Assembly: GCF_000182565.1 (NCBI RefSeq)
Contig: NW_015971561.1
Span: 20,945 to 84,944, forward strand
Length of the DNA stretch: 64,000 nucleotides
From: Spizellomyces punctatus DAOM BR117
Lineage: Eukaryota; Chytridiomycota; Chytridiomycetes; Spizellomycetales; Spizellomycetaceae
Direction of reading: 5' to 3'
Under the pieces are notes generated by a model. It was not told the origin of the DNA, ran no database searches, and saw only the letters and a list, made by a program, of their open reading frames with translations. Below are positions 2-29,600 of this stretch, one piece after another; positions within the stretch are counted from its first letter, which is position 1, and the number at the start of each line of letters is the position of its first letter. The position numbers were made by a program, and so were the translations under genes.

Positions 2-3000
2 CTAGCCAACGACGTTCTGGGACATTTGAAACTCCAAACCTTGGTTCAGGAACCCCCGTTACCCAGTTTCGCGGTGACGCTCAAGAATCCAGACATCCTT
101 ATCCCCTGCTCCATAACGGATGAGCTGGACACCGATCACATGCGCGGCACGCCATACAAGACCAAGCAGGGTGAATTCATGAAGGATGTGTCAATGCCAC
201 GGCTGACCAAAGCCAAAGCTCAGAAGTCTAGATTAACCATGTTAATCACGGGACAGACGCGCGTGGCAGCCCAAACTTTTCTCATCGAAAACCCTCTTGA
301 GGCCACCGCTGCTAGCTCAACGGTCCCGTTAGGCCTCAAACTGTCCACCGCGACCCATAATTCGGTTGCGGACCCCGAAGAGAACATTTCCAAAGAAGAA
401 TGGCAGACACTTCGGAACAAATGGAACCTCGACTCTACGGAGAGGGCTCCAGGGGCCTTCGAAGCCCAATTAAAAGACGCGGAACGTTTCCACGTCGATC
501 TCAAGCGACCCAAACCCGTGGTCTGGGCCCTAATCAACATTCTACGACACTTCCATCAAGCCTTCAGCTATGAGGGTCATCTCATAGGGAACTACACCAA
601 GATTCCTTATGCGCCTCGATTTATCTCGGCTCCGCCACCCCTTTCGAGGCCACGGTCGTACTCTCCGTTGGAGCGGACAGCCCTCGAGACGGAGCGAGAC
701 ACCATGATGGGGCTTCAGAGGTGGAAACGAACCACCGAAGTAACCTTCGCCAGCGATCCTGTTATCATTCGCTACGCAGACAAACCCCCGCGGGTAGCCT
801 TCGACTATCGCCGAGCCAACGACTGCATGGCCTGGGATCCATATCCCTTTCCCATCATGCTCGACATCCTGAACTGGATCGTCGCAGTCCCATTCCGATA
901 CATATCGGGAGGTGACGCAAACAAAGGATTCTACCAAATCGCCATCACCGATGCGTCGGTACGCAAATGGCTCGCGCTCAGACTCCATGACGGCATCTAC
1001 GAACCACTCTTTATGCCCTTCGGACCCAAGACTGCCCCCTCGCACTTCTGTCGGGTGATGGACGACACCTTGGGTCCCTCCAAATGGCGAAATATCAACA
1101 ACTTCGTCGACGATATCCATACACGAGCGGAGACAGCCGCGGAAGCCCTAGATGCCATCGCGGACTGGCTCGACCGCTTTTCCAGAGCCAAACTCACCCT
1201 AAGACTCGACAAGTGTCAATGGCTCTTTCACCAGCTCACGGCCCTCGGTTTCGTTGCCTCCTCTCAGGGTCTCGCTACCGATCCAGACAAGGTCGCAACC
1301 ATAGTCGATTGGCCACAACCCAAATTCATAGGTGACCTATGGTCATTCGTGGGTCTCCTAGGGTTCTACGCCCAATTCATTTCTCGCTACGCGGAACTCG
1401 TCCGACCCCTGCAAGACGCTATCCAAGAGGGCGTTCGCGAATACCGAGACCTTAAAAAGGGTCGCGCTGACCCGAAGAAAGGCGCTGAAAAGCTCAATTC
1501 ACCATCCATGCTCGACACGGCAGTGGCCCCAACAATCACAGCAACCGGAGCCCGATTTGAGGTTTCGCAACATCTTAAATCTAGCTCCTCAGACCTACCG
1601 GCGGTCAATCTACGCCAATCATCGCTGGCGGACTTACCCATTGACCCCTTTTGTGTCGGACGCCTTGCTCGCAAGCGCCCCGACCAAGGTCTGCGCAGAT
1701 TCGTCGCGAAGCGTGAAGTTTCATGGACCGACTCCCGAAACTCTGCCTTCGCAGCCGCCAAGCAGGCTCTGACAACAGCTCCAGTGCTTGCGGCACCCAG
1801 AAAAGGGTTCCCCTACACCCTTCACAGTGACGCTTCCTACACAGCGTTTAATGTCACGCTCGAACAGTTACAGCCGGATGCTTCTAAACGCCCGCTGTGC
1901 TACCATTCCCGAGGCACCACCACCTCGGAAAAGAAGGCCCCCCCCGTCGAACTCGAGGCCGGATGCCTCATTTGGGGCCTCGGAAAACTCCGCCCATACC
2001 TCGAAGGCCTGCCTTTCACGGTCATTACTGATCACCGAGCTCTTTTGTGGCTCGCTAAATACAAAGGCGAGAACCGTAAGCTTCTCCGCTGGGCCCTCGA
2101 TCTTAGTTACTGGTCCGAATGGATGACAATCGTACACAAACCAGGACGCTTCCACATAGTCGCTGATACACTTTCGCGGCTACTTGGCGCGGAAACTCTT
2201 CTTTGCTCTACCGGGACCGAAATATGGGTGTCGGAACGCAAAGGACGACGGCCGCGCACCCCGCCAGCTGCTCTCGCACCTTCCTCGACACTGGCAGATG
2301 CCGTCTTTCGTCTGGCCTTACAGCCTGCACTCATTGCCGCCATCCGCGCTGGCCTCACCGGCCAGCTCCACCCCATAGCCCAACAGGCCCGCATGCTCCT
2401 ATGGGAGACCAGCCCCGACACCTACACTACAGCTGACGCGCGCTTTCATCAGGACTGGCAACGTGCAGATAACCTGCTGTGGCACCGTTTTTCAGTCTCC
2501 GAAGACCTTTGGTGCCTCTACGTGCCCCCTGCTTGCACCCCTGAGGTGCGCAAGCTTTTTCACGAGGGGGGAGGACACTTCGGATTCGAAAGAACCTACG
2601 CTAGAGCTGCAGCACAAGTCTGGTGGCCGAAAATGGCATAAGATTTCAGAAAACATTGCGCAGGATGTGAAACCTGCCAATGCTCAAAAAGGGTACCGCA
2701 ACTGATTCCGGGGTTGTTGAAACCCATACCACCAGCTCCGGGACGCTGGACAGTCATCACGACTGACTTCGTAACCAAGCTCCCACTTACTTCCAGAGGG
2801 TACGATGCCTTTTGGTTAATAGCATGTAAATGCTCAAAGAGGATCCACGTATGGCCCCTCAAGAGCACTGCGACAGCTATTCAGGTCGCGGAACTCTTTA
2901 TAGAGCGCTACGTCCCATTGCACGGCATCCCGGAGACCATTATCTCGGACCGCGACTCCAAATTTACGAGTCGATTTTGGCAGGAGGTCTGCAAAAACCT

Positions 3001-4984
3001 AAAGATTAATCAAGAGCTCACCACAGCCTACCACCCTCAAGGTGATGGACAATCAGAAAGAGACAACGCAACGGTCTTGCAGGTCCTTACCACAATGGTC
3101 AACACCCGATTAGATGACTGGGACACCTTTCTTCCGGTTGCGGAATTCATTATCAACGATACGGTACACGAGGCGACAAAAATGACGCGATTCAGAATGG
3201 ACCTAGGCTATGAGCCCCACAATCCACTGGCGGACATCGTCGAAAGGCCGTCAGAAACCAGAAATGCAGATGCGGAGGAGCTCTGTAAACACCTCGGCGA
3301 CCTAAACATCCTTATCCGAGATCTGATGATCGAAGCCCAGGATTCGCAGAAAAGATATTACGATTTATCGCGACGACATTTGGAGTTCCGGAGAGGAGAT
3401 AAGGTGCTTCTGAGCACGAAAAACCTAGCAGGGTATGAGTCCAAGATCACTCCGAAATGGCTGGGACCAGTCACGGTGACCGACTGTAACCCTCTCCGCG
3501 ACAACTACGAGTTAAAACTGCCAGACAAGATGAGACGACTTCATCCATGGTTTCACATATCGAAATTACGTCCGTACCAGAAGCCTGTCGACGCCGAAAC
3601 TGAGGAAAAGGTCGCGGAAGCACAAGCGGAGGATTCCGACGCTTCAGATGGCGAGTTTGAAGTGGAAGCGATAGTAGACCATCGAACCAGGCGCGGAAAA
3701 CGTCAATTTCGAATACGTTGGTCCGGATACCCACCCCATGAGGATACCTGGGAACCAGAGGAAGCCCTAACAGAGGCTTCCGAAGCCTTAGAAGAGTACT
3801 GGAGATCCAGAGCTCCCACTAGCGCGCTAGTAGAGGACTCTTTGGTAGTCAGCCTTGCAGGCGACGCCCCGGAAGATACGGCTTATGCTTCCGACCACCA
3901 ATGCTTCGCGGTTTATCCGGACGATAGCTCACGTGATAATCACGCCCTCTCACCAGAAAGAAAACCAGTTTCGCGTGGCTTACCTCACCAGTCGAGAACG
4001 CCACACCAAGCCTCCCGATCACGCTTACGCGCGTCCGAGCTGTCAAAATCAGCCGGCGACGACCTTAAAAGGACGCCCCTGCACGCTCCCCCTCTTTTTT
4101 CTTCTTCAACCGCCCACGACCTACTTCCCTTACACACTCACTCTGCTTCGCAAACCCCTTCTATCGACACCGAAACTAAAACTTCCATTTCTAACACAAT
4201 GAACACCGATCTCAGAGGACAAGCAGGAGTGAGCGTACCCTCCACGTACATGTCCGGCTACCCTTGGGAGGAAGACTCGGGCGACTTCGAGGCCGAGGGC
4301 GTGCTGGATCGCCTTGGGGTTGCGATCGCTACCTGGGTTCACTCCTGGGTTCATCAGCTTCGGACCAACCCCAACGCGCCGCTGCAGACTCCAGGGCATG
4401 AGTTTTGGCTGGGAGTCGACGCTCCGAAACCTTACGCGGTGGGCCAGCCCCTCACAAACCACATCGCGGACCCCTACAGCAAGGCCACCGATGGTGGTGA
4501 AGCAGCGGTCGGAATAGTTGCCGACGCGAAAAAACCCGGAAAAAGAGGGCGCCCAGCTCCGTGCGCCGCTTGGCTCGACCGCGGGGTTCCCCAACACGAG
4601 GCGGGAAGCCGAAAAACGGCTCCGTTCACCGATTGGCCGAACGACGACGCCCACGAGTTTGCGTCCGCCGTCATTGAAGCAGCTAGGACGGTGCTCCTAA
4701 GGACGGCGAACGCAGCGGAAGCCTCTGCAAGGCTCACCAGACCCCGACATCACGAGCACGCGGAGTACCATTTCCGCGCGACAAACCTGAAAAGGGCCGC
4801 GGAGACCTTTACGGCCCTCTACGTAACCAGAACTGGCCCCGACGTGACCCCGGGTACCATCGTTCGTACCGCAACAGATCAAATCTGGTTTTGTTGCAAC
4901 GTCGGTGGCCGTGCCAGTATCATCTGGGTCGTGAACCAAGATGCAGATGAAGCGGACCCCACAGATCCGGTACCGACCTGGTAA
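2..4984 (+). pseudogene. pol: G1-A pol polyprotein (partial): RT, RNase H, integrase, chromodomain, C-terminal domain
   Basis: One reading frame spans the piece, interrupted only by TAA at 2639-2641. In order: the end of the protease region; reverse transcriptase (about 700-1400) with the catalytic box FVDD in place of the commoner YVDD/YLDD; RNase H (about 1780-2190) with an HSDAS start and a TDHRALLW motif; the integrase HHCC zinc region (about 2530-2700) with the stop inside it; the integrase core (about 2740-3250) with TDF, SDR and QSER motifs; a chromodomain (about 3661-3800) with RWSGYPPHEDTWEPEE; a basic linker; then an uncharacterised domain (4201-4984). The aligned codon in copy E is CAA (Gln). 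Read-through or inactivity cannot be told apart from sequence alone. Confidence 0.85.
4201..4984 (+). other. Uncharacterised ~260-residue domain C-terminal to the chromodomain (copy A version)
   Basis: The domain is in frame with pol, and an ATG at 4201 would also allow separate translation. It has no obvious signal peptide or membrane segment. The homologous part of copy B (25159-25943) shares blocks such as RGQ-GVS, YPW, QPLT-HIA-PYS, AAVGI-ADAKK-GKR, PCAAWLD-GVPQH, a long block ending ETFTALYVTR, TDQIWFC and IIW. By eye the proteins are about 55% identical, while the pol sequence just upstream is about 95% identical. I do not recognise the family. Conservation of protein blocks despite nucleotide divergence suggests a real function, which is inference. 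Confidence 0.7.
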
Positions 4985-5041
4985 TTGACGTCCCAACACC
5001 CCCGCTCGGAGCGCCGGTGCGTTGGCTCTTCAAAGGGGGGA

Positions 5042-5641
5042 TGTAATGACGAGGACGTCTTCGAGAGATCGCGAGTAAGCCCAAATCGGACGCGGGAAGC
5101 ACGAATCGCGTGACCAACTCCACCGATTGGGTTACCGCGACCGAAAAAACCGGTTCGGAGAATGGCAATTGGCGCATTAGATTTCAGCGTGCCTCGTACA
5201 ACCTGTGGAGGCCCGAGCCAGTGCGGAAAAGGAAGAGATCGGTACCGCCACCAATAAATCAGTTGCGGTGCAGCGACACCCATTAGTTTAGTTTAGTTTA
5301 ACAGTTTATCCAAGAATCTTGTATAAAAAGGATGTATTCAATAAAATAAGTCGGGGGCAGAAGCCGTAGCGACAAAAAATCCCCATAACTCGCTTCTCAA
5401 CTCCAATCTTAGGTTAACAGGAACCTAACAGAGCGCTTCAACGGCCTGATCACCCGTACCGAAGCCTCTAAATCCTGCTCGGTTCACAACTAACCGACTC
5501 TCCTTGCCTCTCGCCCTCAAGTCGCTACCGACGCCCAAAGAAAGGATTTGGAGACTACGATTCCTAGTACGGACACCCACACAACCTGCTAGGAGACCCA
5601 AGTTGTCTTTACCGTAGTCTACCAACAAAAAATCCGTTACA
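5042..5641 (+). repeat. 3' LTR of G1-A with a U3 unlike copy B
   Basis: The 600-bp LTR starts TGTAATG after a G-rich polypurine tract and ends CCGTTACA. From the TATA motif (about 5318, CTTGTATAAAAAGG) to the end it matches the LTRs of copy B almost base for base, including an AATAAA about 20 bp after the TATA box. The U3 upstream (5042-5310) shows no visible similarity to the U3 of B or E. It has a short TTTAG-like repeat near 5285-5300. Confidence 0.88.
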
Positions 5642-5673
5642 TTATACACCGGGTATATCATATTGTAAGCTGG

Positions 5674-5725
5674 CTGATACAGTGCATCAGATAAGCCATT
5701 CGGCTTATCTGATGCACTGTATCAG
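5674..5725. repeat. 24-bp perfect inverted repeat, 4-nt loop
   Basis: The left arm (5674-5697) begins CTGATACAGTGCATC and the right arm (5702-5725) is its exact reverse complement, with loop ATTC. It lies in the 84-bp gap between the end of the A LTR and the truncated end of element E. It is not part of either LTR. It could be two fused terminal repeats of a deleted DNA transposon, or a fold-back created at a breakpoint. Confidence 0.8.
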
Positions 5726-6129
5726 TCGGAAATGAAAGTTTGTGTTTTGGTGTTGATAGAAAAGGTTTGTGAAGCAGAGTAGGTCTGTAAGGGAGATAGG
5801 TTGTAGGTAGTTGAAGAAGAAAAAAGAGGGGGAGCATGCAGGGGCATCCTTTTAAGGTCGTCGCTGGCTGATTTTGACAGCTCGGATGCATGTAAGCGTG
5901 ATCAGGAGGCTTGGTGTGGCGTTCTTGACTGGTGAGGTAAGCTGCGCAAAACTGGTTTTCTTTCTGGTGAGAGGGTGTGATTATCACGTGAGCTATTGTC
6001 CGGATAAACTGCGAAGCATTGGTGGTCGGAAGCATAAGCTGTATCTTCCAGGGTGTTGCCTTCAAGGCTGACTACCAAAGAGTCCTCTACTAGTGTGCTA
6101 GTGGGAGCTCTGGATCTCCAGTACTCTTC

Positions 6130-9100
6130 TAAGGCTTCGGAAGCCTCTGTTAGGTCTTCCTCTGATTCCCATGTATCCTCATGGGGTGGATATCCGGCCC
6201 AACATATTTGAAATTGACACTTTCTGCGCCTGGTTCAATGGTCTACTATTGCTTCCACTTTGAACTCGCCTTCTGAAGTGTTGGAATCCTCCGCTTGTGC
6301 TTCCGCGACCTTTTCCTCAGTTTCGGCGTCGACAGGCTTCTGGTACGGACGTAATTTCGATATGTGAAACCATGGATGAAGTCATCTCATCTTGTCTGGC
6401 AGTTTTAACTCGTAGTTGTCATGGAGAAGGTTTCAGTCGATCACTGTGACTGGTCCCAGCCATTTTGGAGCGCTCTTGGACTCATACCCTGCTAGGTTTT
6501 TCATGCTCAGAAGCACCTTATCTCCTCTCTGGAACTCCAAATATTGTCACAATAAATTGTAATATCTTTTCTGCGAATCCTGGGCTTCGATCATCAGATC
6601 TCGGATAAGGATGTTTAGGTCGCCGAGGTGTTTACAGAGCTCCTCCGCATCTGCATTTCTGGTTTCTGACGGCCTTTCGACGATGTCCGCCAGTGGATTG
6701 TGGGGCTCATAGCCTAGGTCCATTCTGAATCGCGTCATTTTTGTCGCCTCGTGTACCGTATCATTGATAATGAATTCCGCAACCGGAAGAAAGGTGTCCC
6801 AGTCGTCTAATTGGGTGTTGACCATTGTGGTAAGGACCTGCAAGACTGTTGCATTGTCTCTTTCTGATTGTCCATCACCTTGAGGGTGGTAGGCTGTGGT
6901 GAGCTCTTGATTAATCTTTAGGTTTTTGCAGACCTCCTGCCAAAATTGACTTGTAAACTTGGGGTTGTGGTCCAAGATAACAGTCTCCGGAATGCTGTGC
7001 AATGGGATGTAGCATTCTATGAAGAGTTCCATGACCTGAATAGCTGTCATGGTGCTCTTGAGGGGCCATACATGGATCCTCTTTGAGCATTTACATGCTA
7101 TTAGCCAAAAGGCATTGTACCCTCTGGAAGTAAGTGGGAGCTTGGTTATGAAGTCAGTTGTGATGACTGTCCAGCATCCTGGAGCTGGTGGTATGGGTTT
7201 CAGCAACCCCAGAATCAGTTGCAGTACCCTTTTTGAGCATTGACAGATTTCACATCCTGCGCAGTGTTTTCTGAAATCTTGTGCCATCTTTGGCCACCAG
7301 ACTTGTGCTGTGGCTCTGGTGTAGGTTCTTTCGAATCCAAAGTGTCCTCCCCCCTCATGAAAAAGCTTGCACACCTCGGGGGTGCAAGTGGGGGGCATGT
7401 AGAGGTGCCAAAGGTCTTCAGAGACTGAAAAATGGTGCCACAGCAGGTTATCTGCACGTTGCCAGTCCTGAAGAAAGTGTGTGTCAGCTGTAGTGTAGGT
7501 GTTGGGGCTGGTCTCCCATAGGAGTGTGCAGGCCTGTTGGGTTATGGGGTGGAGCTGGCCAGTGAGGCCAGTGTGGATGGTGGCAATGAGTGCAGGCTGT
7601 AATGCCAGACAAAAGACAGCATCTGCCAGTGTTGAGGAAGGTGTGAGAGCTGCTGGTGTGGTGCGTGGCCGTCATCTTCCATGTTCTGACACCCATATTT
7701 GGGTCGCAGTGGAGCAGAGAAGGGTTTCCGCTCCTAGTAGCTGTGAAAGTGTATCAGTGACAATGTGAAAATGTCCTGGTTTGTGAATGATTGTCATCCA
7801 TTCAGACCAGTAACTAAGATTGAGGGCCCAGCGGAGAAGCTTACAGTTCTCACCTTTGTATTTAGCAAGCCATAAAAGAGCTCGGTGATTGGTAATGACT
7901 GTGAAAGGCAGGCCTTCAAGGTATGGGCAGAGTTTTCCAAGGCCCCAAATGAGGCATCTGGCCTTGAGTTTGACCAGTGGGGCCTTCTTTTCCAGGGTGG
8001 TGGTGCCTTGGGAGTGGTAGCACAGCAGGTGTTTGGAGGCATCCAGCTGTAACTGTTTGAGTGTGACATTAAACATGGTGTAGGAAGTGTCACTGTGAAG
8101 GGTGTAGGGGAACCCTTTTCTGGGTGCTGCGAGCACGGGAGCTGTTGTCAGTGCCTGTTTGGTGGCTGCAAAGGCAGAGTTTCGGGAATCAGTCCATGAA
8201 ACTTCACGCTTTGTGATAAATCTGTGCAGACCTTGGTTGGGGCGCTTGCAAGCAAGGTGTCTGACACAAAAGGGGTCAATGGGCACATCTGCCAGTGATG
8301 ATTGGCATAGATTGACTGCTGGTAGGTCTGAGGAGCTAGATTTTGGATGATGTGAAACCTCAAATCGGGCTCTGGTGGCTGTGATTGTAGGGGCCACTGC
8401 CGTGTTGAGAGCATGGATGGTGAATTGAGCTTTTCAGCACCTTTCTTTGGGTCAGCATGACCCTTTTTAAGGTCTTGGTATTCATGAATGCCCTCTTGGA
8501 TAGCATCTTGCAGGGGTCAGATGAGTTCTGTGTAGTGAGGGATGAATTGGGCATAGAACCCTAGGAGACCCATGAAGGACCATAGGTCACCTATGAATTT
8601 GGGTTGTGGCCAATCAACTATGGTTGTGACCTTGTCTGGATTGGTAGTGAGACCCTGGGAGGAGGCAATGAAACTGAGAGCTGTGAGCTGGTGAAAGAGC
8701 CATTGACACTTGTTGAGTCTTAGGGTGAGTTTGGCTCTGGAAAAGCGGTCGAGCCAGTCTGCGATGGCATCTAGGGCTTCTGCGGCTGTCTCTGCTCATG
8801 TATGGATATCATTGATGAAGTTGTTGATATTTTGCCATTTGGAGGGACCCAAGGTGTTGTCCATTACCTGACAGAAGTGCAAAGGGGCAGTCTTGGGTCT
8901 GAAGGGCATAAAGAGTGGTTCATAGATGCCGTCATGGAGTCTGATCATGAGCCATTTGCGTACTGACACATTGGTGATGGTGATTTGGTAAAATCCTTTG
9001 TTTGTGTCACCTCCTGATATGTATTGGAATGGGACTGTGACGATCCAGTTCAGGATGTCGAGCATGATGGGAAAGGGATATGGGTCCCAGGCCATGCAGT

Positions 9101-9585
9101 CATTGGCTTGGTGATAGTTGAAGGCTACCTGCGGGGGTTTGTCTGCATAGTGAATGATAACAGGATCACTGGTGAAGGTTACTTTGGTGGTTTGTTTCCA
9201 CCTCTGAAGCCCCATCATGGTGTCTCGCTCCGTCTCGAGGGCTGTCCGCTCCAACGGAGAGTACGACCGTGGCCTCGAAAGGGGTGGCGGAGCCGAGATA
9301 AATCGAGGCGCATAAGGAATCTTGGTGTAGTTCCCTATGAGATGACCCTCATAGCTGAAGGCTTGATGGAAGTGTTGTAGAATGTTGATTAGGGCCCAGA
9401 CCACAGGTTTGGGTTGCTTGAGATCAATGTGGAAACGTTCTGCATCTTTTAATTGGGCTTTGAAGGCCCCTGGAGCCTTCTCTGTAGAGTTGAGGTTCCA
9501 TTTGTTCTGAAGTGTCTGCCATTCTTCTTTGGAAATGTTCTCTTTGGGGTCTGCAACCAAATTATGGGTTGTGGTGGACAGTTTG
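6130..9585 (-). pseudogene. pol: G1-E pol remnant: RT to chromodomain
   Basis: The open pieces are RT (9560-8796, catalytic box seen as FIND, so the first catalytic Asp is lost), the RT tail (8799-8614), RNase H (8397-7672), integrase (7398-6547) and a degraded chromodomain (about 6240-6130). Stops and substitutions relative to A are mostly C-to-T or G-to-A at former CpGs. At the integrase codon that is TAA in A and B, E has CAA. The remnant is almost certainly non-functional. Confidence 0.85.
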
Positions 9586-9590
9586 AGGCC

Positions 9591-10201
9591 TGTAACAGGC
9601 TAGCAGGGACAAGAAGACAACAGAAAACTAGGGAAGACTTGGTTACTACTTGTTATTTCCCTTTGAGGGGCCTCAGAGAGGTCCTCTTTTTATAGACAAA
9701 TGGGGCTGACAAATGCTATATCCTAACTACCCAATCAGATCTCACCCACATCATCCTAAACTATTTGTCAGCCTATTGCACCATTTGCAACCAATCAGAA
9801 CTCATACATGTCATCCTAAACTATTTGTCAGCCTATTGCACCATTTGCAACCAATCAGATCTGACAGATGTCATCCTAAACTATTTGTCAGCCTATTGCA
9901 CCATTTGCAACCAATCAGATCTTATACATGTCATCCTAAACTATTTGTCAGCCTATTGCACCATTTATAGCCAATCACAAGTGAGACAAGTCATCCTAAA
10001 TACACTGTGCCACTTGATTGAAAGGGGCAGATGCTAGTGTGTCAGGATACTCATCTAATTTAGCCAGAAATGGCTAAATCTGCTTATTTATCTAATTCTG
10101 GTCAAATGAATGTTGACACCATCAGCAAAGTCATGTGACCGCTAGTTTGGAACCACATCTAACCAGTATAACTATAGCACTGACAGAAGAATTCTGTCAC
10201 A
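9591..10201 (-). repeat. Solo LTR of Gypsy family G2, expanded U3
   Basis: It matches the LTRs of element C on the opposite strand, with ends TGTGACAG...TGTTACA read on the minus strand. It is flanked by the 5-bp duplication AGGCC (9586-9590 and 10202-10206). It is 611 bp long against 430 bp in C, and the extra length comes from a 60-bp tandem repeat. No internal region remains, so it is a solo LTR left by LTR-LTR recombination inside pol of E. Confidence 0.93.
9725..10000. repeat. 60-bp tandem repeat with CCAAT box in the G2 U3
   Basis: About 4.5 copies occur at an exact 60-bp period. Each has a core reading AACCAATCAG followed by a variable stretch, then TCATCCTAAACTATTTGTCA. The G2 LTR at 15377-15806 has only about two units. 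CCAATCAG fits the NF-Y/HAP-type CCAAT consensus, so the array could be a promoter-enhancer element; that role is inference. Confidence 0.9.
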
Positions 10202-11259
10202 AGGCCTAACAGGGGTGTTGAGCTAGCTGCGGTGGCCTCAAGAGGGTTTTCGATGAGAAAAGTTTGGGCTGCCATGCGCGTCTGTCCCGTGATTAACATG
10301 GTTAATCTAGACTTCTGAGCTTTGGCTTTGGTCAGCCGTGGCATTGACACATCCTTCATGAATTCGCCCTGCTTGGTCTTGTATGGCATGCTGTGCATGT
10401 GATCGGTGTCCAGCTCATCTGTTATGGAGCAAGGGATAAGGATGTCCGGATTCTTGAGCATCACCACGAAACTGGGTAACAGGGGTTCCTGAACCAAGGT
10501 TTGGAGTTTCAAATGTCCCAGAACGTCATTGGCTAGGATGATGAGAGATTTCCTGTATGCAATGACTTGGAAATAGGCGCAGAAAGTCAGGTATTCTCCT
10601 CCGCAGCCTCTGAGGGAAGTTTCAAGGCATACTGTCTTGGTAGATGAGATATGTCCACCAATGCCATTGAAAGCCATCATTTCTGCATCCTGCAAATCGG
10701 TTTTGGAGAACAGAAGGCCCTGGTACGTGTCGGAAACCAGAGACTCACAGGCTCCTGTGTCTAGTACCACAGGTGCCCAGAGCTGAGCGATGATGGCTAG
10801 CATCCAGCAAGGCTGTGTTTGGGTCTTGGTCTGGCTTTTGAGTACATTGCCTAAATCTACCAAGTAGAAGGCGTTGATGGAAGGCACTGTGACCTCGAAA
10901 TGGGGCGCAATGTCGTTACTTGTTGCTTCTGTAGCCTTGATTGCACTCTCAAAGTGCTCTCTAGATTTGTTGTTTTGTGGTTTTGTTGTTTTATTCTGGC
11001 GAGCAACTTGTTCGATAGCCAGCATGACTATACGCGTCCGTTCGCTCTCTTCGTGTCTTTGGAGACGTGGATGGTCTTTAACGTGCAGAAATTTGGGGTT
11101 TCCGTGATGATAATAATAGTCTGAGCGAACGATATTGCCTGTCAGGAGAAATGCCACCAGTTGCAGGTTGGCATAAGAATCAAAGATAACAGGATCTTCG
11201 GAGCTCCACATCAAGAATTTCTCACACTCGTTGAGCCTTATCCAGGCAAGGAGGATCAA
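10159..11259 (-). pseudogene. G1-E protease and N-terminal pol
   Basis: This frame continues after the gag stop and carries a retropepsin-type motif, VVLDTGACES, near 10755. It is cut at 10206 by the G2 solo LTR, so its last residues come from LTR sequence. Corresponding residues in B (20248-21250) are nearly the same. The DTG active-site triad is intact even though the element as a whole is broken. Confidence 0.8.
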
Positions 11260-11286
11260 ACGAGGGGTACCGTCTTCTCGGACTTT

Positions 11287-12990
11287 TCACAGGATTCGAT
11301 CCTTGTCAGCTTCGGCTGCGGCAGCAATGTAGAGGTGGTGGGAACTCCACGCGACTGCGTAGGGGTCGTTCCCAAGGTGCCCGGTGCCTCGCTTCGGTTC
11401 TTTGGCGAAGAAGCTGAGCGCGCGGGGGTTGTTGCCCATCATCAGAGCCACTTGCGGGGTGCCCCAGATGATGGCTATGTTGTCCCAGACTTGGTCCCAG
11501 CCCTGCGTGGGCATGCGGGGGTCCTCTTCCTTGGTCACCGTGACCTTGGAAAGAGGTGCGGTCATCAAAATTGTTGATTCCGAGTGCTCGGGTGAATGAA
11601 AGAATCCGATGGTGTGGAATCCTTGATTAGCGGCGGCTGTCCTTTCCAGTTCCGAAGCCGAAAAAAGAGTCTCGGTGGTAGCGGACGTCGAGTCCAGCTC
11701 CACTATGTATGACTTCTTGGACTCCTGTTTGGGTTTCCAACCTGCGGGCATGGGTGCTCCATATGGTCCCTTCTTTCCATCTTCAGGATCTTTTCGGTTC
11801 GGGTTCTGCCAGCAGAAAACATTCCAATGCTTTTTCTGACAGAATTTGCAGGGTGCTGGTGGTTCTGTGTTGGGGTCCGGAACCATCTTCTGAGGGCCGT
11901 CGCGACCCTTTTCGGGGTTTCCGGTTTTATGTTGAGCCGTCTGCTTAGGGCCTTTGTCGATTGCGGTCTTTTGTGACTTCTTCTGAGCTTCAGCAGCACC
12001 GCTGTAGCAAGGGTCTCGTTTTCTGGTGTCATCAGAGCCGAAATAAAGGCACAGGAAGTCTTTTAATTTGGTCAGCTTCGTGACGTTACAGGATTTGACC
12101 ATGATTTGGATGTTGCTGGGCAATTGTTTGACTATTAGGTTGAAATGCTGGTCAGCAGGACATTCTATGTTTGCCCAGTCGCCATAAGCAAGGTGCTGGA
12201 GATGAGTTTTGTGGTTGATGAATGCAAGAAAGCTGTGAAATTCTTTGGGGTTTGCATGACAGCACACATATTCAGCTTTGTGCTTGGATTCGGTTAGGGG
12301 GTCTCGGAACTCTTGAAGCAGTTCTTCCTTCCACCTTTTCCAGGTCCATGAGCAAGTTTCCTGGGCTTCCAGAGTGTAAAACCAGGTGTTGGCAGGGGTT
12401 TTCTTGGCTATCATGGCTGGTAGGAGCTGTACCATCCTGGCATCTGATGTTGTGCTAATGTTTTGAAGAAGTTGGACTTTGTTAAGCCATTCTTCAATGT
12501 CTTGGTTTCTTTTGCCTGTAAACTTGGGTATGTCCTTTGCTTTCAAGGAATTGACCTTGGTGTTGCTGGCCCACGGGGCCACTGGCACTTGGATTGGAGG
12601 CACCGCACCTGAAAAACTTGGTTCGGTACGCTCCCTTGGTGTGTCCGCCGTTTCCCACGGGGTTGCGGACCGTTCTCTTGTAGCTCGTGCTATGAGAGGT
12701 TGTTCAGGCAGCGGGTGATGCGCTAGGGCTTCTAAGGCTCATGTGAGGTGCTCATCCACCGCTGTCTGACATTCAGAAAGCCTATGAAGCTGTTCCATAA
12801 GATTTTGAGTTGCCAACTGCATTGCAGCAGTTGAGCGGGCAATGTCTTCTTTTAATGCTGCCACTTCAGAGGCCATCATGGCCAAGTTAGGGGCTTCTGG
12901 TTTGATGGAAGTGGTCCCTGAATGCCTTGGGTGTGTTGCGGGAGAGACTTTGACGTCCTCTGCAGGACCCTGACTATGAGTCTGGATCAC
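11287..12990 (-). pseudogene. gag: G1-E gag
   Basis: Two open blocks (12990-12739 and 12603-11287) are in the same frame, separated by a CGA-to-TGA stop. The N-terminal part is coiled-coil-like (ASEVAALKEDIARSTAAMQ). A gag capsid-type region follows, then a basic stretch and a zinc knuckle of spacing C-x2-C-x3-H-x4-C near 11795-11840. The frame ends in TGA (11287-11289) directly before the protease frame, with no change of phase. Copy B has the same stop. Confidence 0.8.
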
Positions 12991-13187
12991 AGGTGAGTGG
13001 CCTCATGTTGGTGAGTGTTTGACCAGCATCATTCTCGGTTTCATGAAGTTCTGTCTCCGAAACAAGAGAAAAAGTTTCTGAGTAGCTACCTGAGTGGATC
13101 TCGGTTTGTGCAAGAGTTTTGGTATGACCAAATAAGGTTTTCAGCTGAATTTGAGAGGGGAAGGCAGTTTGTTGTGCTTCTCCACCA

Positions 13188-13760
13188 TGTAATGGATTTT
13201 TTGTAGGTAGACTACGGTAAAGACAACTTGGGTCTCCTAGCAGGTTATGTGGGTGTCCGTACTAGGAATCATAGTCTCTGAATCCTTTCTTTGGGTGTTG
13301 GTAGTGAATTGGGGGTGAGAGGCAAGAAGAGTTGGTTAGTTGTGAACCGAGCAGGATTTAGAGGCTTCAGTGCAGGTGATCAGGCTGTTGAAGTGCTCTG
13401 TTAGGTTCCTGGTAACCTAAGATTGGAGTTGAGAAGCTAGTTGTGGGGATTTTGTGTTGCTATGGCTTCTGCCCTGCTGACTTATTTTTTTGAATTTGTC
13501 TTTTTATACAAGAATATGCTATGGTAACATCTACACTAGTTTCCGTAGCCTTCATTAGGGTGGCGGCATCTGATCTTCCCATCTCGGACCATTGCCATGA
13601 TTGATCATGGCTGTGTAACATATCCTTCACGCTGCGCTGGTGTAGCCCAGAACCGAGCTTGATCTTAGGGGTTTTGAAGCTTAGGTTACAATTGCAGAAA
13701 CCTCAATCGTGGTCACCTGATGCCTTTGAGCAAACTGGTCTATCAGAGTCATTCGCTACA
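13188..13760 (-). repeat. 5' LTR of G1-E
   Basis: The 573-bp LTR matches the B LTRs on the opposite strand, with many former CpGs changed. The 16-bp palindrome found in the B U3 is damaged here at its central CpG. The sequence after it on the minus strand begins TGG (13185-13187), as expected at a primer binding site. Confidence 0.92.
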
Positions 13761-13978
13761 TTTTCCTGCTTCAAATCTCTTTTCTGATGGCCACACCATC
13801 TTCCTGACAGACCTATCCTCTTCCCAACCTCATATTTGCACCACCTACCACACCAGGATGCAATTTCACCTCTTCCCCAACAGCAAATTCACTCACCCAA
13901 TCAGCTCAGACATGTCAAACACAGACTTGGACACCAAACTCACAATGGAAAAGTTCAGTGGCATGAACTGCCACCTCT
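13761..13978 (+). mobile_element. Copia D0 fragment: leader and gag start
   Basis: This is Copia leader and the first roughly 20 gag residues (ATG at 13911) in plus orientation. It matches the minus-strand region 38480-38690 of D3. Its left side was interrupted by element E within the leader. Its right side runs, at a 5-nt microhomology (TGGAA), into a minus-oriented Copia LTR, so the original element was destroyed by rearrangement. Confidence 0.85.
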
Positions 13979-17748: not shown

Positions 17749-18320
17749 TGTAGCGAACGACTCTGATAAACCGGTTCACTCAAAGGCATCAGGTGACCAC
17801 AATTGAGGTTTCCGCAATTGTAACCTAAGCTTCGAAACCCCTAAGATCAAGCTTGGTTCTGGGCTACACCAGCGCAGCGTGAAGGATATGTTACGCAGCC
17901 ATGATCGATCATGGCGATGGTCCGAGATGGGAAGATCAGACGCCGCCACCCTAATGAAGGCTATGGAAACTAGTGTAGATGTTACCGTAGCATATTCTTG
18001 TATAAAAAGAGGAATTCAATAAAATAAGTCGGCGGCCAGAAGCCGTAGTGACACTAAATCCCCACAACTAGCTTCTCAACTCCAATCTTAGGTTAACAGG
18101 AACCTAACAGAGCGCTTCAACGGCCTGATCACCCGCACTGAAGCCTCTAAATCCTGCTCGGTTCACAACTAACCGACTCTCCTTGCCTCTCGCCCTCAAG
18201 TTGCTACCGACACCCAAAGAAAGGATTTGGAGACTACGATTCCTAGTACGGACACCCACATAACCTGCTAGGAGACCCAAGTTGTCTTTACCATAGTCTA
18301 CCAACAAAAAATCTGTTACA
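17749..18320 (+). repeat. 5' LTR of G1-B
   Basis: It starts TGTAGCGAACG and ends TCTGTTACA. U3 holds a 16-bp perfect palindrome (17899-17914, CCATGATCGATCATGG). A TATA box CTTGTATAAAAAG is at about 17998 and AATAAA at about 18018. TGGTGGAGAAGC follows at 18321 as the putative primer site. It differs from its 3' partner (26001-26572) at a small number of positions. Confidence 0.94.
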
Positions 18321-23200: not shown

Positions 23201-24800
23201 GAAACGCGGAAGATGACGGCTGCGCACCACACCAGCTGCTCTCGCACCTTCCTCGACACTGGCAGATGCCGTCTTTCGTCTGGCCTTACAGCCTGCACTC
23301 ATTGCCGCCATCCGCGCTGGCCTCACCGGCCAGCTCCACCCCATAGCCCAACAGGCCCGCATGCTCCTATGGGAGACCAGCCCCGACACCTACACTACAG
23401 CTGACGCGCGCTTTCATCAGGACTGGCAACGTGCAGATAACCTGCTGTGGCACCGTTTTTCAGTCTCCGAAGACCTTTGGTGCCTCTACGTGCCCCCTGC
23501 TTGCACCCCCGAGGTGCGCAAGCTTTTTCATGAGGGGGGAGGACACTTCGGATTCAAAAGAACCTACGCTAGAGCTGCAGCACAAGTCTGGTGGCCGAAA
23601 ATGGCATAAGATTTCAGAAAACATTGCGCAGGATGTGAAACCTGCCAATGCTCAAAAAGGGTACCGCAACTGATTCCGGGGTTGTTGAAACCCATACCAC
23701 CAGCTCCGGGACGCTGGACAGTCATCACGACTGACTTCGTAACCAAGCTCCCACTTACTTCCAGAGGGTACGATGCCTTTTGGCTAATAGCTTGTAAATG
23801 CTCAAAGAGGATCCACGTATGGCCCCTCAAGAGCACTGCGACAGCTATTCAGGTCGCAGAACTATTTATAGAACGCTATGTCCCATTGCACAGCATCCCG
23901 GAAACTATCATCTCAGACCATGACCCCAAATTTACGAGTTGATTTTGGCAGGAGGTCTGCAAAAACCTAAAGATTAATCAAGAGCTCACCACAGCCTACC
24001 ACCCTCAAGGTGATGGACAATCAGAGAGAGACAACGCAATGGTCTTGCAGGTCCTTACCACAATGGTCAACACCCGATTAGATGACTGGGACACCTTTCT
24101 TCCAGTTGCAGAATTCATTATCAACGATACGGTACACGAGGCGACAAAAATGACGCAGTTCAAGATGGACCTAGGCTATGAGCCCCACAATCCACTGGCG
24201 GACATCGTTGAAAGGCCGTCAGAAACCAGAAATGCAGACACGGAAGAGCTCTGTAAACATCTCAGAGACCTAAACATCCTTATCCGGGATCTGATGATCG
24301 AGGCCCAGGACTCGCAGAAAAGATATTATGATTTATTGCGACGACATCTGGAGTTCCGGAGAGGAGATAAGGTGCTTCTGAGCACAAAAAACCTAGCAGG
24401 GTATGAGTCCAAGATCGCTCCGAAATGGCTGGGACCAGTCACAGTGACTGACTGCAACCCTCTCCGCGACAACTATGAGCTAAAACTGCCAGACAAGATG
24501 AGATGACTTCACCCATGGTTTCACATATCGAAATTACATCTGTACCAGAAGCCTGTTGATGCCGAAACTGAGGAAAGGATTGCGGAAGCACAAATGGAGG
24601 ATTCCGATGCTTCAAAAGGTGAGTTCGAAGTGGAAGCGATAGTAGACCATCGAACCAGGCACGGAAAGTGTCAATTTTGAATACGTTGGGCCGGATACCC
24701 ACCCCATGAGGATACCTGGGAACCAGAGGAAGCCCTAACAGAGGCTTCTGAAGCCTTAGAAGAGTACTGGAGATCCAGAGCTCCCACTAGCACACTAGTA
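20248..24800 (+). pseudogene. pol: G1-B protease, RT, RNase H, integrase, chromodomain
   Basis: The protease has VVLDTGACES (about 20745). RT runs about 21660-22400 with box FIDD, then RNase H (22752-23216), the integrase zinc region (23361-23609), the integrase core (23682-24506) and the chromodomain (about 24620-24770). Stops at 22414, 23214, 23940, 24504 and 24678 are all CGA to TGA relative to A. The TAA at 23607 is shared with A. A single C is missing near 22571 and shifts the frame. Confidence 0.88.
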
Positions 24801-24809
24801 GAGGACTCC

Positions 24810-25943
24810 TTGGTAGTCAGCTTTGCAGGCAATGCCCCGGCTTATGCTTCTGACCACCAATGCTTCACGATTTATCCGGACAATAGCTCACGTGATAATC
24901 ACGCCCTCTCACCAGAAAGAAAACCAGTTTCGCGTGGCTTACCTCACCAGTTGAGAATGCCACACCAAGCCTCCCGATCACGCTTACGCACATCCGAGCT
25001 GTCAAAATCAGCCGGCGATGACCTTAAAAGGACGCCCCTGCACGCTCCCCCTCTTTTTTCTTCTTCAACTACCTACGACCTATCTCCCTTACAGACCTAC
25101 TCTGCTTCGCAAACCTTGTCTATCGACACCGAGACAAAAGCTTTCGTTTCCAACACCATGACCACCGATATCCGAGGACAACAAGGAGTCAGCATCCTCT
25201 CTACCCTTGAGGAAGGCTATCCCTGGTCAGAAGTAAGCGACGCCTTCGCTGCCGAGAACTCTATCAAGCGGCTCGGAGCAGCTATGGCCACCTGGGTCGA
25301 AGTTTGGATTCGTGAGCTGTTCGAAGACCCAAACAAACCCCTTGAACACTATCGTGGTGAAGATTGGGTGGTTGACGGGTCTTCGAAGCCATACGCCACG
25401 AGCCAGCCCCTCACGATGCATATCGCGGAGCCCTACAGTAGGGCTTCCGACGGCAGTCAAGCAGCTGTCGGTATCATCGCCGACGCAAAAAAGATCGGGA
25501 AGAGATTACGGGACGTACCCTGCGCCGCCTGGCTTGACGCTGGGGTCCCTCAACATGCGGCCGGAAACCCCAAAACGGCCTGCTTCACCCTCTGGCCCGA
25601 TCGCGAGGCCCACGATTTCGTGGACATAGCCATCGAAGCCACAAGAGCAGTGTTGTTAAAGCTAGCCAACACAGCTGAAACCACAGAAGAGCAGCTCCGT
25701 CCCAAACATCGGGAGCACGCCTATTACCACTTTCGAGCAGTTAACTTGAAAAGGGCCGCAGAGACGTTCACAGCCCTCTACGTAACCCGAGCCAATGGTT
25801 CCAGGACACCTGGAACCCCGGCTCCGGAAGCCACTGACCAAATTTGGTTCTGCGCGAACGTCATGGGGCACGCTACCATAATCTGGACAATCAACGAAGA
25901 CAGCCTTGAAGCTGACGACGACTATCCAGTTGCATCATGGTAG
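24810..25943 (+). CDS. G1-B linker and uncharacterised C-terminal domain
   Basis: This 377-residue open frame covers the basic linker after the chromodomain and the whole C-terminal domain (from ATG 25159). Up to about 25130 the nucleotides match A closely; beyond that they diverge strongly while protein blocks stay alike. The frame is free of stops although pol upstream has many, partly because few CGA codons occur in it. Function is unknown. Confidence 0.65.
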   Translation: MVVSFAGNAPAYASDHQCFTIYPDNSSRDNHALSPERKPVSRGLPHQLRMPHQASRSRLRTSELSKSAGDDLKRTPLHAPPLFSSSTTYDLSPLQTYSASQTLSIDTETKAFVSNTMTTDIRGQQGVSILSTLEEGYPWSEVSDAFAAENSIKRLGAAMATWVEVWIRELFEDPNKPLEHYRGEDWVVDGSSKPYATSQPLTMHIAEPYSRASDGSQAAVGIIADAKKIGKRLRDVPCAAWLDAGVPQHAAGNPKTACFTLWPDREAHDFVDIAIEATRAVLLKLANTAETTEEQLRPKHREHAYYHFRAVNLKRAAETFTALYVTRANGSRTPGTPAPEATDQIWFCANVMGHATIIWTINEDSLEADDDYPVASW

Positions 25944-26000: not shown

Positions 26001-26572
26001 TGTAGCGAACGACTCTGATAAACTGGTTCACTCAAAGGCATCAGGTGACCATGATTGAGGTTTCCACAATTGTAACCTAAGCTTCGAAACCCCTAAGATC
26101 AAGCTCGGTTCTGGGCTACACCAGCGCAGCATGAAGGATACGTTACGCAGCCATGATCGATCATGGCGATGGTCTGAGATGGGAAGATCGGACGCCGCCA
26201 CCCTAATGAAGGCTACGGAAACTAGTGTAGATGTTACCATAGCATATTCTTGTATAAAAAGAGGAATTCAATAAAATAAGTCGGCGGCCAGAAGCCGTAG
26301 CGACACTAAATCCCCACAACTAGCTTCTCAACTCCAATCTTAGGTTAACAGGAACCTAACAGAGCGCTTCAACGGCCTGATCACCCGCACTGAAGCCTCT
26401 AAATCCTGCTCGGTTCACAACTAACCGACTCTCCTTGCCTCTCGCCCTCAAGTCGCTACCGACGCCCAAAGAAAGGATTTGGAGACTACGATTCCTAGTA
26501 CGGACACCCACACAACCTGCTAGGAGACCCAAGTTGTCTTTACCGTAGTCTACCAACAAAAAATCCGTTACA
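26001..26572 (+). repeat. 3' LTR of G1-B
   Basis: It is preceded by the polypurine tract GAAGGGGGGA. It has the same 572-bp structure as the 5' LTR, including the 16-bp palindrome at 26151-26166, and ends TCCGTTACA just before the second GAAG. Confidence 0.94.
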
Positions 26573-26638
26573 GAAGCCTCTCTCCAAACTCACTGAGGCT
26601 GAGAAGACTGAGCTCAGAAAGAAGGGAGCCTGTTTCAG

Positions 26639-29600
26639 GTGCAGAAAGCCAGGCCATATTGCCCCCCTATGCCCCTTGAAGACCAAGCAGCAGGGAAATG
26701 GCAAGCAGACTCAGTAGAAGATGGAGGTTCTGCCTCTACTGGGGAAGATATCAAGAACCACCACCCTGACACCCACCACCTGGTACACTCTCCTGTTATT
26801 CAACCCTTGGACCTATTGGACCCACCTGAAACCACCCCTGAGACTTTAACTATCCATGGACTTTACCTGGAACCCCAGAGAAACCCAGAATCCCAGAGAA
26901 CCCCAGAAACCCAGAGAATCCCAGAACCCCAGAGAACCCCAGAATCCCAGAGAACCCCAGAACCCCAGAGAACCCAAGAGCCCCAGAGAACCCCAGAACC
27001 CCAGAGAACCCAAGAACCCCAGAGAACCCCAGAACCCCAGAGAACCCTAGAACCCCAGGAAACCCAGGAACCCCAGAGAACCCCAGAACCCCAGACCACC
27101 CAGGCCACCTACCAAGAAAGCAAGATCCATGTAGTAGAGGTGGCTCCATACTCTTTAAGTACCCCCAAAGGGCCAAGGATTCCCCAGAGTCACTTGCTGA
27201 CTGTGCAAGGTATAATCCAAGGAATCCCAGTAACCATTCTCCTGGATAATGGGGCAAACCAGCTCTATGTGTCACAGTCCTTTGTCAAGAAGGCACAACT
27301 GGTGACTCATTCTCTCCCTGGAGCAGAAATCTCTATGGCTGATGACAGAAAGCACCAAGAAATAGGCTTTGTCAAAGGTCTTCAGTACACAGTAGGAACC
27401 TACACAGAACAGTCAGACTTTATAGTAGCCCCAATCAAGTTTGACTTGATCTTGGGTATACCTTGGTTTGCCTGGAGGAATCCCGGTATCAACTACAACA
27501 AGAACACTGTGACCTTCACTACTTCCCAGTACCCCAGAGTCAGATGGTTTGTTAAGCAGGCCAGCTCTTCCAGCAAATCCCAGAAGTCCAATCTTATCAC
27601 CATGGTATCAGCAAAGATGTTCGCCAGAACACTGAAGAAGAGGACAGCAACAGCTTTTGCTGTGTATCTCAAGAACCCTCAAGATACCAGCACCCCTCCA
27701 GACACCATGGATTCCAAAGTCACCAAGCTTCTTGAAAACTATCAAGATGTCTTTGCTGAAGAGCTTCCCCCAGGACTTCCCCCTGAGAGATCAGTAGATC
27801 ACAGAATTGAACTCAGTGACCCCAACCAGACCCCCTGGAGACCAACCTACCACCTCTCTTCTTTGGAGTTAGAAGAACTGAGGAAGCAGCTTTCAGAGCT
27901 TCTGGAGGCAGGCCACATCAGACCATCCAAGAGCCCATTTGGAGCACCTATCCTCTTTGTTAAGAAGAAAGAAGGTTTTTGGAGGATGTGTGTGGACTAC
28001 AGGGCTCTGAATAAAATCACCATCAAGAACAGTTATCCCCTCCCTAGGGTTGATGAGCTGATGGATAGGCTGAATGGAGCCCAGGTGTTTACCAAGCTAG
28101 ATCTGAAGTCAGGCTATTACCAGATCAGAGTCCACCCAGAAGACATCCCCAAGACAGCCTTCAGAACCAGATATGGTCACTTTGAGTTCCTGGTCATGTC
28201 CTTTGGAATGACCAATGCCCCAGCCACTTTCATGACTTTGATGAATGATGTCCTTAGACCCTTCTTGGACATCTTTGTTATTGTCTACCTAGATGACATC
28301 CTCATCTACTCCAAGACCCCAGAAGATCACGTGCACCACCTCAAGCAGGTTCTGCAAACCCTCAGGCAGAACAAGCTGTATGCCAACCCCAGCAAGTGCC
28401 AGTTCCTCAAGCAAGAAGTAGAGTTTCTTGGCCATGTAGTCTCACATGAAGGGGTCAAGCTTGACCCCAAGAAAGTGCAGACTGTTCAAGAATGGCCCAC
28501 CCCCAAGAGTGTCACTGAAGTCAGACAGTTCATGCGCCTGGTGAACTACTTCCATAGCTTTCTGAAGGACCTGGCAGAGCAAGCTGCACCATTGTCAGAC
28601 CTGTTGAGAAATGACAAGCCCTGGACCTGGTCTGAACCTCAGGAGAAAGCTTTTCAGCAGCTGAAGGATATGGTCACCAAAGCCCCTGTACTTAGACCCT
28701 TTGACCCAGCCTTGCCTACCACTGTCTTCCCTGATGCCTCAGGCTATGCAGTTGGTGCATGGCTTGGACAGGATGATGGGAAAGGCAGGAGACCAGTTGC
28801 CTACCACTCCAGGAAGATGGCCCCAGCAGAGACCAGATATGACACCAGAGAACAAGAGCTGTTAGCCATCCATGATGCCCTCAGAGTTTGGAGGCCCTAC
28901 CTGGAAGGAACCCCCTTCAAAGTTATCTCAGACCACCAGTCCCTCAAGTGGCTACAGAACCAGCCCTTCTTGACCAGAAGACAAGCCAGATGGGTCGTGA
29001 ATTTCCAATCTTTTGACTTTGAGATTGGCTATGGCCCAGGAAGACTCCACACAGTGGCAGACATCCTGTCTAGAAGACCAGACCTGGCCCCAAGATGCAT
29101 CAAGTGCAAGGCCTTGGTGACAGCAGAGTTGAATGCTGTGACCCACACCACCAGCACCCTTCAAGAGAGATTGAAGACCAGTACCACAGAAGACCCAGAA
29201 CTTCAAGAGCTCATCCAAGCTTTCGATGACCCCAGGAGACCAGAAGACCAGCAACAAAGGCTCAAATACCTCAGCCATCAAGATGGGTTACTCTATTTCC
29301 AGGACAGGATCTTTGTTCCTAGTGACCCAGACCTAAGGTTGAGCCTACTCCAAGAAACCCATGACACTCAGTATGCTGGACACTTTGGCATCACCAAGAC
29401 CCATGATGCCCTAGCAAGGCATTACTACTGGCCCAGGATGTACAAGGACATTAAGAAGTATGTCAAGTCTTGTGATTCCTGCCAGAGAAGCAAACCTAGT
29501 CAGCAACCACCAGCAGGCCTGCTGCAGCCCCTCCCAGTACCTAAGACCAGATGGAGCCAGATTTCCATTGACCTGATCCCTGACCTACCTATGACTTCCT

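What the first reader, a model, noticed from the sequence alone, without database searches (positions are those of the whole stretch)
4170..5310. C-terminal domain and U3 of a Gypsy element exchanged as one cassette between copies A and B
Copies A and B are nearly identical through integrase and chromodomain (to about 4170 and 25130). They then diverge sharply through the ~260-residue C-terminal domain and the whole U3, and become near-identical again from the TATA box to the LTR end. The switch points fit template switching or recombination replacing a 3' module. The two protein versions keep many blocks, so both seem to be under selection. I know no named Gypsy domain with these blocks. A Gypsy module pairing a chromodomain with this unknown domain and its own promoter may be undescribed.
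Basis: partly seen in the sequence, partly recalled or inferred. Interest (0 to 1): 0.82.

Follow-up and report, generated by a model that had tools for sequence, protein, structure and literature searches.

The report
Swappable 3' cassette in chytrid retrotransposon
A family of jumping genes in a soil chytrid fungus shares one common body but carries either of two very different 3' ends, each made of an unknown protein domain plus its own promoter; mixing of parts by recombination is known biology, but the protein domain matched nothing in the libraries searched.

Summary
The genome is that of Spizellomyces punctatus DAOM BR117. Copies A and B belong to one chromodomain Ty3/Gypsy family with two 3' cassettes: a 261-residue domain after the chromodomain (CTD), the polypurine tract and U3. 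Over up to 14 A-type and 10 B-type copies, columns sharing no letter between types number 0 of 1765 upstream (2346-4110), 239 of 786 in the CTD, 108 of 246 in U3 and 0 of 296 in R-U5. Within-type diversity is alike in backbone and cassette, so this is not fast local evolution. Between two copies with full-length open frames, dS is 0.03-0.16 over Gag-Pol and 1.44 in the CTD, dN/dS 0.22. CTD and U3 types agree in 24 of 24 cases. The integrase-chromodomain tree rejects either type as a clade (AU p<0.001), so cassettes moved between backbones. Template switching is the likeliest route; DNA-level exchange is not excluded. The CTD had no significant family, PDB or fold match and was found only in Spizellomyces. 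U3 swapping is known (crapaud, Tnt1); coupling it to an unknown coding domain is a new variant.

The parts
2714..4984 (+). Copy A, open frame: end of integrase, SH3-like part, chromodomain, linker and CTD
   Evidence: Pfam rve, SH3_Tf2-1, Chromo (chromodomain residues 315-364, about 3656-3805)
3806..4198 (+). Copy A linker between chromodomain and CTD; type-specific letters begin within 4111-4198 (left edge of the cassette)
4199..4984 (+). Copy A CTD, type A (261 residues, P0006)
5032..5041 (+). Copy A polypurine tract
   Evidence: sequence; named by eye
5042..5318 (+). Copy A 3' LTR, U3 type A
5319..5345 (+). Copy A TATA box to presumed start of R (right edge of the cassette)
   Evidence: start of R inferred from the TATA box
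5346..5642 (+). Copy A R-U5, without type-specific columns
17749..18320 (+). Copy B 5' LTR, U3 type B; target duplication GAAG with 26573-26576
24810..25943 (+). Copy B open frame: end of linker and CTD
25158..25943 (+). Copy B CTD, type B (261 residues, P0007)
26001..26572 (+). Copy B 3' LTR; U3 type B about 26001-26247, then R-U5
5725..13761 (-). Copy C, an older copy of the family with a type B 5' LTR (about 13188-13761), interrupted at about 9591-10202 and cut off at the cassette edge (5725)

Best explanation
One chromodomain Ty3/Gypsy family of S. punctatus forms a recombining population with a common Gag-Pol backbone and common R-U5, and two old, deeply diverged alleles of a 3' cassette (CTD, polypurine tract, U3). 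Shown: the two cassettes, their edges, the CTD-U3 linkage, their presence on intermixed backbones, a low dN/dS between the CTDs, and a third diverged CTD at another locus. Inferred: (1) two RNAs of different type are packed in one particle; (2) minus-strand DNA that starts from the 5' R-U5 of one RNA jumps at R to the 3' end of the other RNA and copies its U3, polypurine tract and CTD; (3) reverse transcriptase then switches back in the homologous linker or upstream; (4) because the cassettes are only about 60% alike, switches inside them fail, so CTD and U3 stay together. The original cassette came from a related lineage that had diverged long before; no donor was found in this genome. The CTD is most likely a soluble accessory or targeting part of the polyprotein; this last point is a guess.
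For: Columns with no shared letter 0/1765, 239/786, 108/246, 0/296. Mean pairwise difference within type B is 0.062 in the backbone and 0.062 in the CTD, while the A-B difference is 0.051 and 0.374, so the step is genealogical and not a rate effect. dS 0.03-0.16 over Gag-Pol segments against 1.44 in the CTD of one reading frame; within that backbone dS also varies, from 0.026 (codons 900-1400) to 0.157 (1900 to chromodomain end), as in a mosaic. Backbone tree: A held as a clade rejected, p 0.0007; B p 0.0006 (12 A and 7 B rows, L010 dropped); with L010 kept, A rejected at p 0.0006. CTD and U3 trees each split by type. CTD type equals the type of the U3 behind it in 24 of 24; three further A-type matches have none behind them (given 27 of the 34 matches). 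At least two left junctions. Of six copies with two LTRs examined, four (window B, L038, L041, L042) have LTRs of one type and a 4-base target duplication. Onsen in Arabidopsis recombines in this way, with junctions at the R-region transfer and in coding sequence (PMC5668417, passages).
Against: The R-U5 tree alone does not reject type A as a clade (p 0.166). In the backbone trees the well-supported branches force only one change of type; the three changes counted, and which copies are the chimeras, rest on weak branches, and the AU tests carry the claim. L006/L042 lies nearer to A than to B by identity, but the tree puts it outside the group of A copies and L001-L004. Both edges lie where homology stops, so they do not tell template switching from DNA gene conversion. 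L033 has a type B 5' LTR and a type A 3' LTR without a target duplication, which fits DNA-level recombination, although the rover authors read unlike LTRs as RT switching (PMC12992720, passages). No donor was seen: the 73 RT matches are either 81-100% or 25-41% identical. CTD dS is near saturation.
Confidence: 0.75

Rival explanations
1. DNA-level ectopic recombination or gene conversion between inserted copies made the chimeras and keeps backbone and R-U5 alike.
For: L033 has LTRs of two types and no target duplication; unlike LTRs in crapaud were put down to gene conversion or ectopic recombination (PMC10787394, passages).
Against: Four of six copies with two LTRs have LTRs of one type and target duplications, three of them type B and one type A. 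A conversion after insertion would have to replace the CTD and the U3 of both LTRs together.
Confidence: 0.2
2. No exchange: two subfamilies diverged by fast evolution of the CTD and U3 only (diversifying selection or relaxed constraint).
For: U3 is the variable part in Tnt1 and crapaud (PMC1838419, PMC10787394; passages).
Against: Synonymous divergence jumps about tenfold at the edge and CTD dN/dS is 0.22; within-type CTD diversity equals that of the backbone; the backbone tree rejects both types as clades.
Confidence: 0.03
3. The CTD is a captured host gene with its own promoter (TTAAAAGG and a pyrimidine tract before the ATG), expressed apart from Pol.
For: An ATG at the CTD start in A, B and L032; a stand-alone annotated gene SPPG_02276; the promoter-like letters are named by eye only.
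Against: Full-length copies are one open frame of 2519 and 2515 codons through the CTD. L032 seems to carry the end of the chromodomain region and a diverged 3' LTR, so it looks like a 5'-truncated element: its alignment to the linker of A starts at A 3789 and scores 116 (best of 100 shuffles 39), although the part before the linker match alone scores 38 (best shuffle 39), no better than chance.
Confidence: 0.08

Closest known systems
crapaud of Podospora anserina (PMC10787394; abstract, passages and section 12 seen)
   Same: Fungal LTR element with a chromodomain; subfamilies that differ mainly in U3 up to the TATA box; conserved R-U5; internal region not tracking LTR type; 7 of 150 full copies with unlike LTRs; first-strand transfer discussed.
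   Different: There the variation is described for U3 (14 subfamilies); no coding domain travelling with it is mentioned in the parts I read. Here the unit includes a 261-residue domain and there are two multi-copy types.
Tnt1 superfamily of Solanaceae (PMC1838419; passages seen)
   Same: Modular evolution: U3 types differ over a shared RNase H region.
   Different: Another superfamily (Copia, recalled); U3 alone; no added domain in the passages seen.
rover and other insect endogenous retroviruses (PMC12992720), envelope exchange in retroviruses (PMC10536682); passages seen
   Same: RT-mediated recombination that reassorts a 3' gene and LTR control region.
   Different: The 3' gene there is env; the CTD here has no membrane-like stretch and no significant library match.
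Onsen/Copia78 of Arabidopsis (PMC5668417; passages seen)
   Same: Recombination during bursts with junctions at R and in coding sequence.
   Different: Shown by experiment among members of one family; no diverged cassette in the passages seen.

Membership tests
Chromovirus (chromodomain Ty3/Gypsy) | Chromodomain behind integrase in Pol | tested here: met
   PF00665, PF24626, PF00385 in this order, all over cut-off
Chromovirus (chromodomain Ty3/Gypsy) | LTRs TG..CA with short target duplication | tested here: met
   4 of 6 copies with two LTRs have a 4-base duplication
Chromovirus (chromodomain Ty3/Gypsy) | RT placed within the chromovirus clade by phylogeny | not tested
   No RT tree was built
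U3-variant LTR family (crapaud-like) | U3 diverged up to the TATA box, R-U5 conserved | tested here: met
   108 of 246 against 0 of 296 columns without a shared letter
U3-variant LTR family (crapaud-like) | Variation confined mainly to the LTR | tested here: not met
   The CTD diverges with U3
Template-switch recombinants | Mosaic copies with LTRs of one type and target duplications | tested here: inconclusive
   L038 and L042 have both and mosaic-like identity, but the tree does not settle which copies are the chimeras
Template-switch recombinants | R-U5 sorts independently of U3 | tested here: inconclusive
   0 of 296 columns without a shared letter, but AU p 0.166
env-bearing errantivirus-like element | Membrane-spanning 3' gene product | tested here: not met
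   Highest 19-residue hydropathy 0.91 (A), 0.97 (B), 0.74 (third type)
Any named protein family for the CTD | Profile, sequence or fold match | tested here: not met
   Pfam and NCBIfam none, PHROGs best E 0.035, PDB best E 1.3 (NCBIfam was given the longer P0001 and P0002); Foldseek best E 1.3 (PDB) and 0.51 (viral) with a poor model, mean pLDDT 56

The most novel reading that the evidence does not exclude
The cassette is a lock-and-key pair: the CTD is an element-encoded regulator (activator, or restrictor of copy number) specific for its own U3, and the two versions are kept side by side like alleles under balancing selection because each escapes control aimed at the other.
Probability: 0.1. 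Interest if true: 0.82.

Novelty: new variant of a known kind. Interest (0 to 1): 0.52.

Why it matters
It extends modular evolution of LTR elements from the promoter alone to promoter plus a protein domain outside env, with many natural replicates in one 24 Mb genome. It also shows that subfamily trees of such elements depend on the segment used. The CTD is an apparently selected orphan domain, seen so far only in one genus, behind the chromodomain of open full-length frames, so its role (targeting, regulation, particle function) can be tested directly.

Tried and rejected
Captured host gene with own promoter: followed because L032 and L035 seemed to start at the same place; weakened when the L032 alignment reached back to A 3789, the end of the chromodomain region. 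Domestication of SPPG_02276: its frame is open (353 codons) but it is single-copy next to a diverged LTR, and the first 20 or so residues of the S. palustris relative do not fit the family and look like another frame (read by eye); not supported. Search for a donor family in this genome: none seen. Fold comparison: models of mean pLDDT 54 and 56, no significant match, so no fold is claimed. A search with the polyprotein's last 380 residues found nothing among proteins of polyprotein length. Genome contigs (bacteria and archaea) gave no relative. L052 (C12) was fetched and matched neither CTD nor LTR.

Counts to keep in mind: lists of genomic copies are lower bounds (one search scored 40 of 42 candidates, 40 of 76; one of the 26 U3-B places is a 66-base piece). 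Rows dropped: L010 (internal gap, misaligned part); L005, L007, L020, L028, L034 too short for the backbone tree; copy C carries no label. One search was given 27 of the 34 matches; left out were L023, L024 (part of the CTD also listed as L026), L027 (copy C), L030, a second C13 piece, a third piece of the C9 CTD and a 37-residue piece on C12.

Full report
What it is. The window is G000:C25:20945-84944. Three annotated relatives of the CTD are named as Spizellomyces punctatus DAOM BR117 proteins on contigs whose lengths equal those of G000 contigs C6, C18 and C12, so the host is that chytrid (a saprotroph, recalled). The feature is the 3' end of two copies (A and B) of one chromodomain Ty3/Gypsy family; a third, older copy C lies between them on the other strand. 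Two genomic copies carry single open frames of 2519 (L041, type A) and 2515 codons (L038, type B) up to the end of the CTD. Integrase, SH3-like part and chromodomain are recognised by Pfam; the CTD is not.

The observation. The CTD query matched 34 places in the genome. Sorted by type, the aligned copies (up to 14 A and 10 B rows, L010 left out) share a letter at all 1765 columns of window 2346-4110 and at all 296 of R-U5, and share none at 239 of 786 CTD columns and 108 of 246 U3 columns. In the single pair L041/L038, 150-base bins show 93-99% identity through Gag-Pol, 79% at the left edge, 49-73% inside, 83% at the right edge, then 96%.

Why it is not local fast evolution. Mean difference within type B is 0.062 in integrase-chromodomain and 0.062 in the CTD; within type A 0.019 and 0.024; between types 0.051 and 0.374. 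Synonymous divergence in the same reading frame steps from 0.03-0.16 (0.31 in the last 35 linker codons) to 1.44. dN/dS of the CTD is 0.22 (L041/L038) and 0.21 (window A/B), with dS close to saturation (pS 0.64-0.66), so the ratio is a rough figure, but well under 1.

Why it is exchange. The CTD and U3 trees split by type. The integrase-chromodomain tree does not: holding type A as a clade costs 23 log units (p 0.0007), type B the same (p 0.0006, 12 A and 7 B rows). The tree needs at least three changes of type, but its starred branches alone force only one, so the number and direction of moves are open. The R-U5 tree also needs three changes but does not reject a clade (p 0.166). At the left edge, L005, L006, L007 and L009 differ from A at a few places in 4111-4120, are A-like to about 4157 and then turn B, while L001-L004 and L008 carry another set of letters from 4111 on, so there was more than one junction. 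Every CTD with a U3 right behind it has the U3 of its own type, 24 of 24 (13 A, 11 B); three more A-type matches have none (27 of 34 matches given).

Timing. Window B, L038, L041 and L042 have two LTRs of one type and a 4-base target duplication; L039 has no duplication; L033 has a type B 5' LTR, a type A 3' LTR and no duplication; L040 shows one LTR in the stretch held. LTR pairs are 97.0, 98.4, 100 and 95.8% alike in window B, L038, L041 and L042. So each cassette entered with its backbone as one insertion in these four. L038 (type B) is 97-99% like L041 (type A) over the middle of Pol, where dS is 0.026 (codons 900-1400), but mostly 93-97% over integrase and chromodomain, where dS is 0.157, as expected of a mosaic. 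L042 is nearer to A by identity (95.7% against 93.1%), but the tree does not place it with A. I take this as favouring, not proving, a switch during reverse transcription. L033 can be read as DNA-level exchange, as in crapaud, or as RT switching, as in rover.

Age of the cassettes. The three CTD types are about equally far apart: A-B 59.8%, A-third 54.0%, B-third 55.3% protein identity (the third is the L032 locus, SPPG_02276). A relative in Spizellomyces sp. 'palustris' is 77% identical to that third type and about 60% to A and B over about 130-139 residues. The RT matches seen in the genome are either this family (81-100%) or 25-41% identical, so no donor was seen. U3-A is found at 40 places and U3-B at 26 (lower bounds), 22 of the U3-A places being 100% identical to copy A at the printed precision: type A is probably the recently active one.

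What the CTD may do. It is acidic (pI 5.1-5.7) and without a membrane-like stretch; AlphaFold models are weak (pLDDT 54 and 56) and match nothing significantly (run on the second model). Position behind the chromodomain makes a targeting or integrase-linked role the default guess; linkage with U3 allows a regulatory role, but linkage is also what lack of homology inside the cassette would give, so it is no evidence of co-adaptation by itself.

Against known systems. Crapaud of Podospora is closest: U3 variants up to the TATA box on a common body, with unlike LTRs in 7 of 150 full copies (PMC10787394, abstract, passages and section 12). Tnt1 is a parallel in plants (PMC1838419, passages). Onsen gives the experimental mechanism (PMC5668417, passages), rover and env swapping the case with a 3' gene (PMC12992720, PMC10536682, passages). 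A fungal survey mentions dUTPase at the carboxyl end of Pol and an additional open frame in some elements (PMC2864245, passages), so extra Pol parts are known in fungi. That I found no description of this CTD rests on search listings 31, 83 and 96 and passages of PMC3248453 and PMC2864245; subscription papers and Repbase were not searched.

Verdict. Real, well defined and mechanistically ordinary in its likely route, unusual in its cargo: a new variant of modular LTR-element evolution with an orphan, apparently selected domain.

Noticed in passing
window 2639-2641 and 23607-23609: Copies A and B carry the same TAA behind the RNase H part (it ends A's frame), although two other copies have one open frame through the element.
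   Followed up: no
window 5671-5730: A palindrome with arms of about 23 bases sits where copy C stops being like A and B, about 80 bases from the end of copy A; footprint of another element or a foldback insert.
   Followed up: no
window 26573-30559: Copy B abuts, at its 3' end, a second retroelement-like frame (26639-30559) that starts with what reads by eye like a zinc knuckle, has a tandem array at about 26870-27102 and holds a distant RT match.
   Followed up: no
L035, about 8230-8400 (G000:C13): A decayed CTD is interrupted by sequence that reads by eye like mitochondrial nad1, perhaps a nuclear mitochondrial insert; not tested (seen in the alignment).
   Followed up: no
L032:7178-8236 (G000:C3:1534563-1535621, SPPG_02276): Single-copy third type of CTD with an open frame, no Pol match in the 7 kb held upstream and a diverged LTR behind it.
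   Followed up: partly
G000:C9:736811-745651: Element with a type B 5' LTR and a type A 3' LTR, no target duplication, abutting the end of another type A CTD.
   Followed up: partly
family-wide: Stops inside decayed copies of this family are nearly all TGA, as expected from C-to-T change at CGA; perhaps methylation-driven decay.
   Followed up: no
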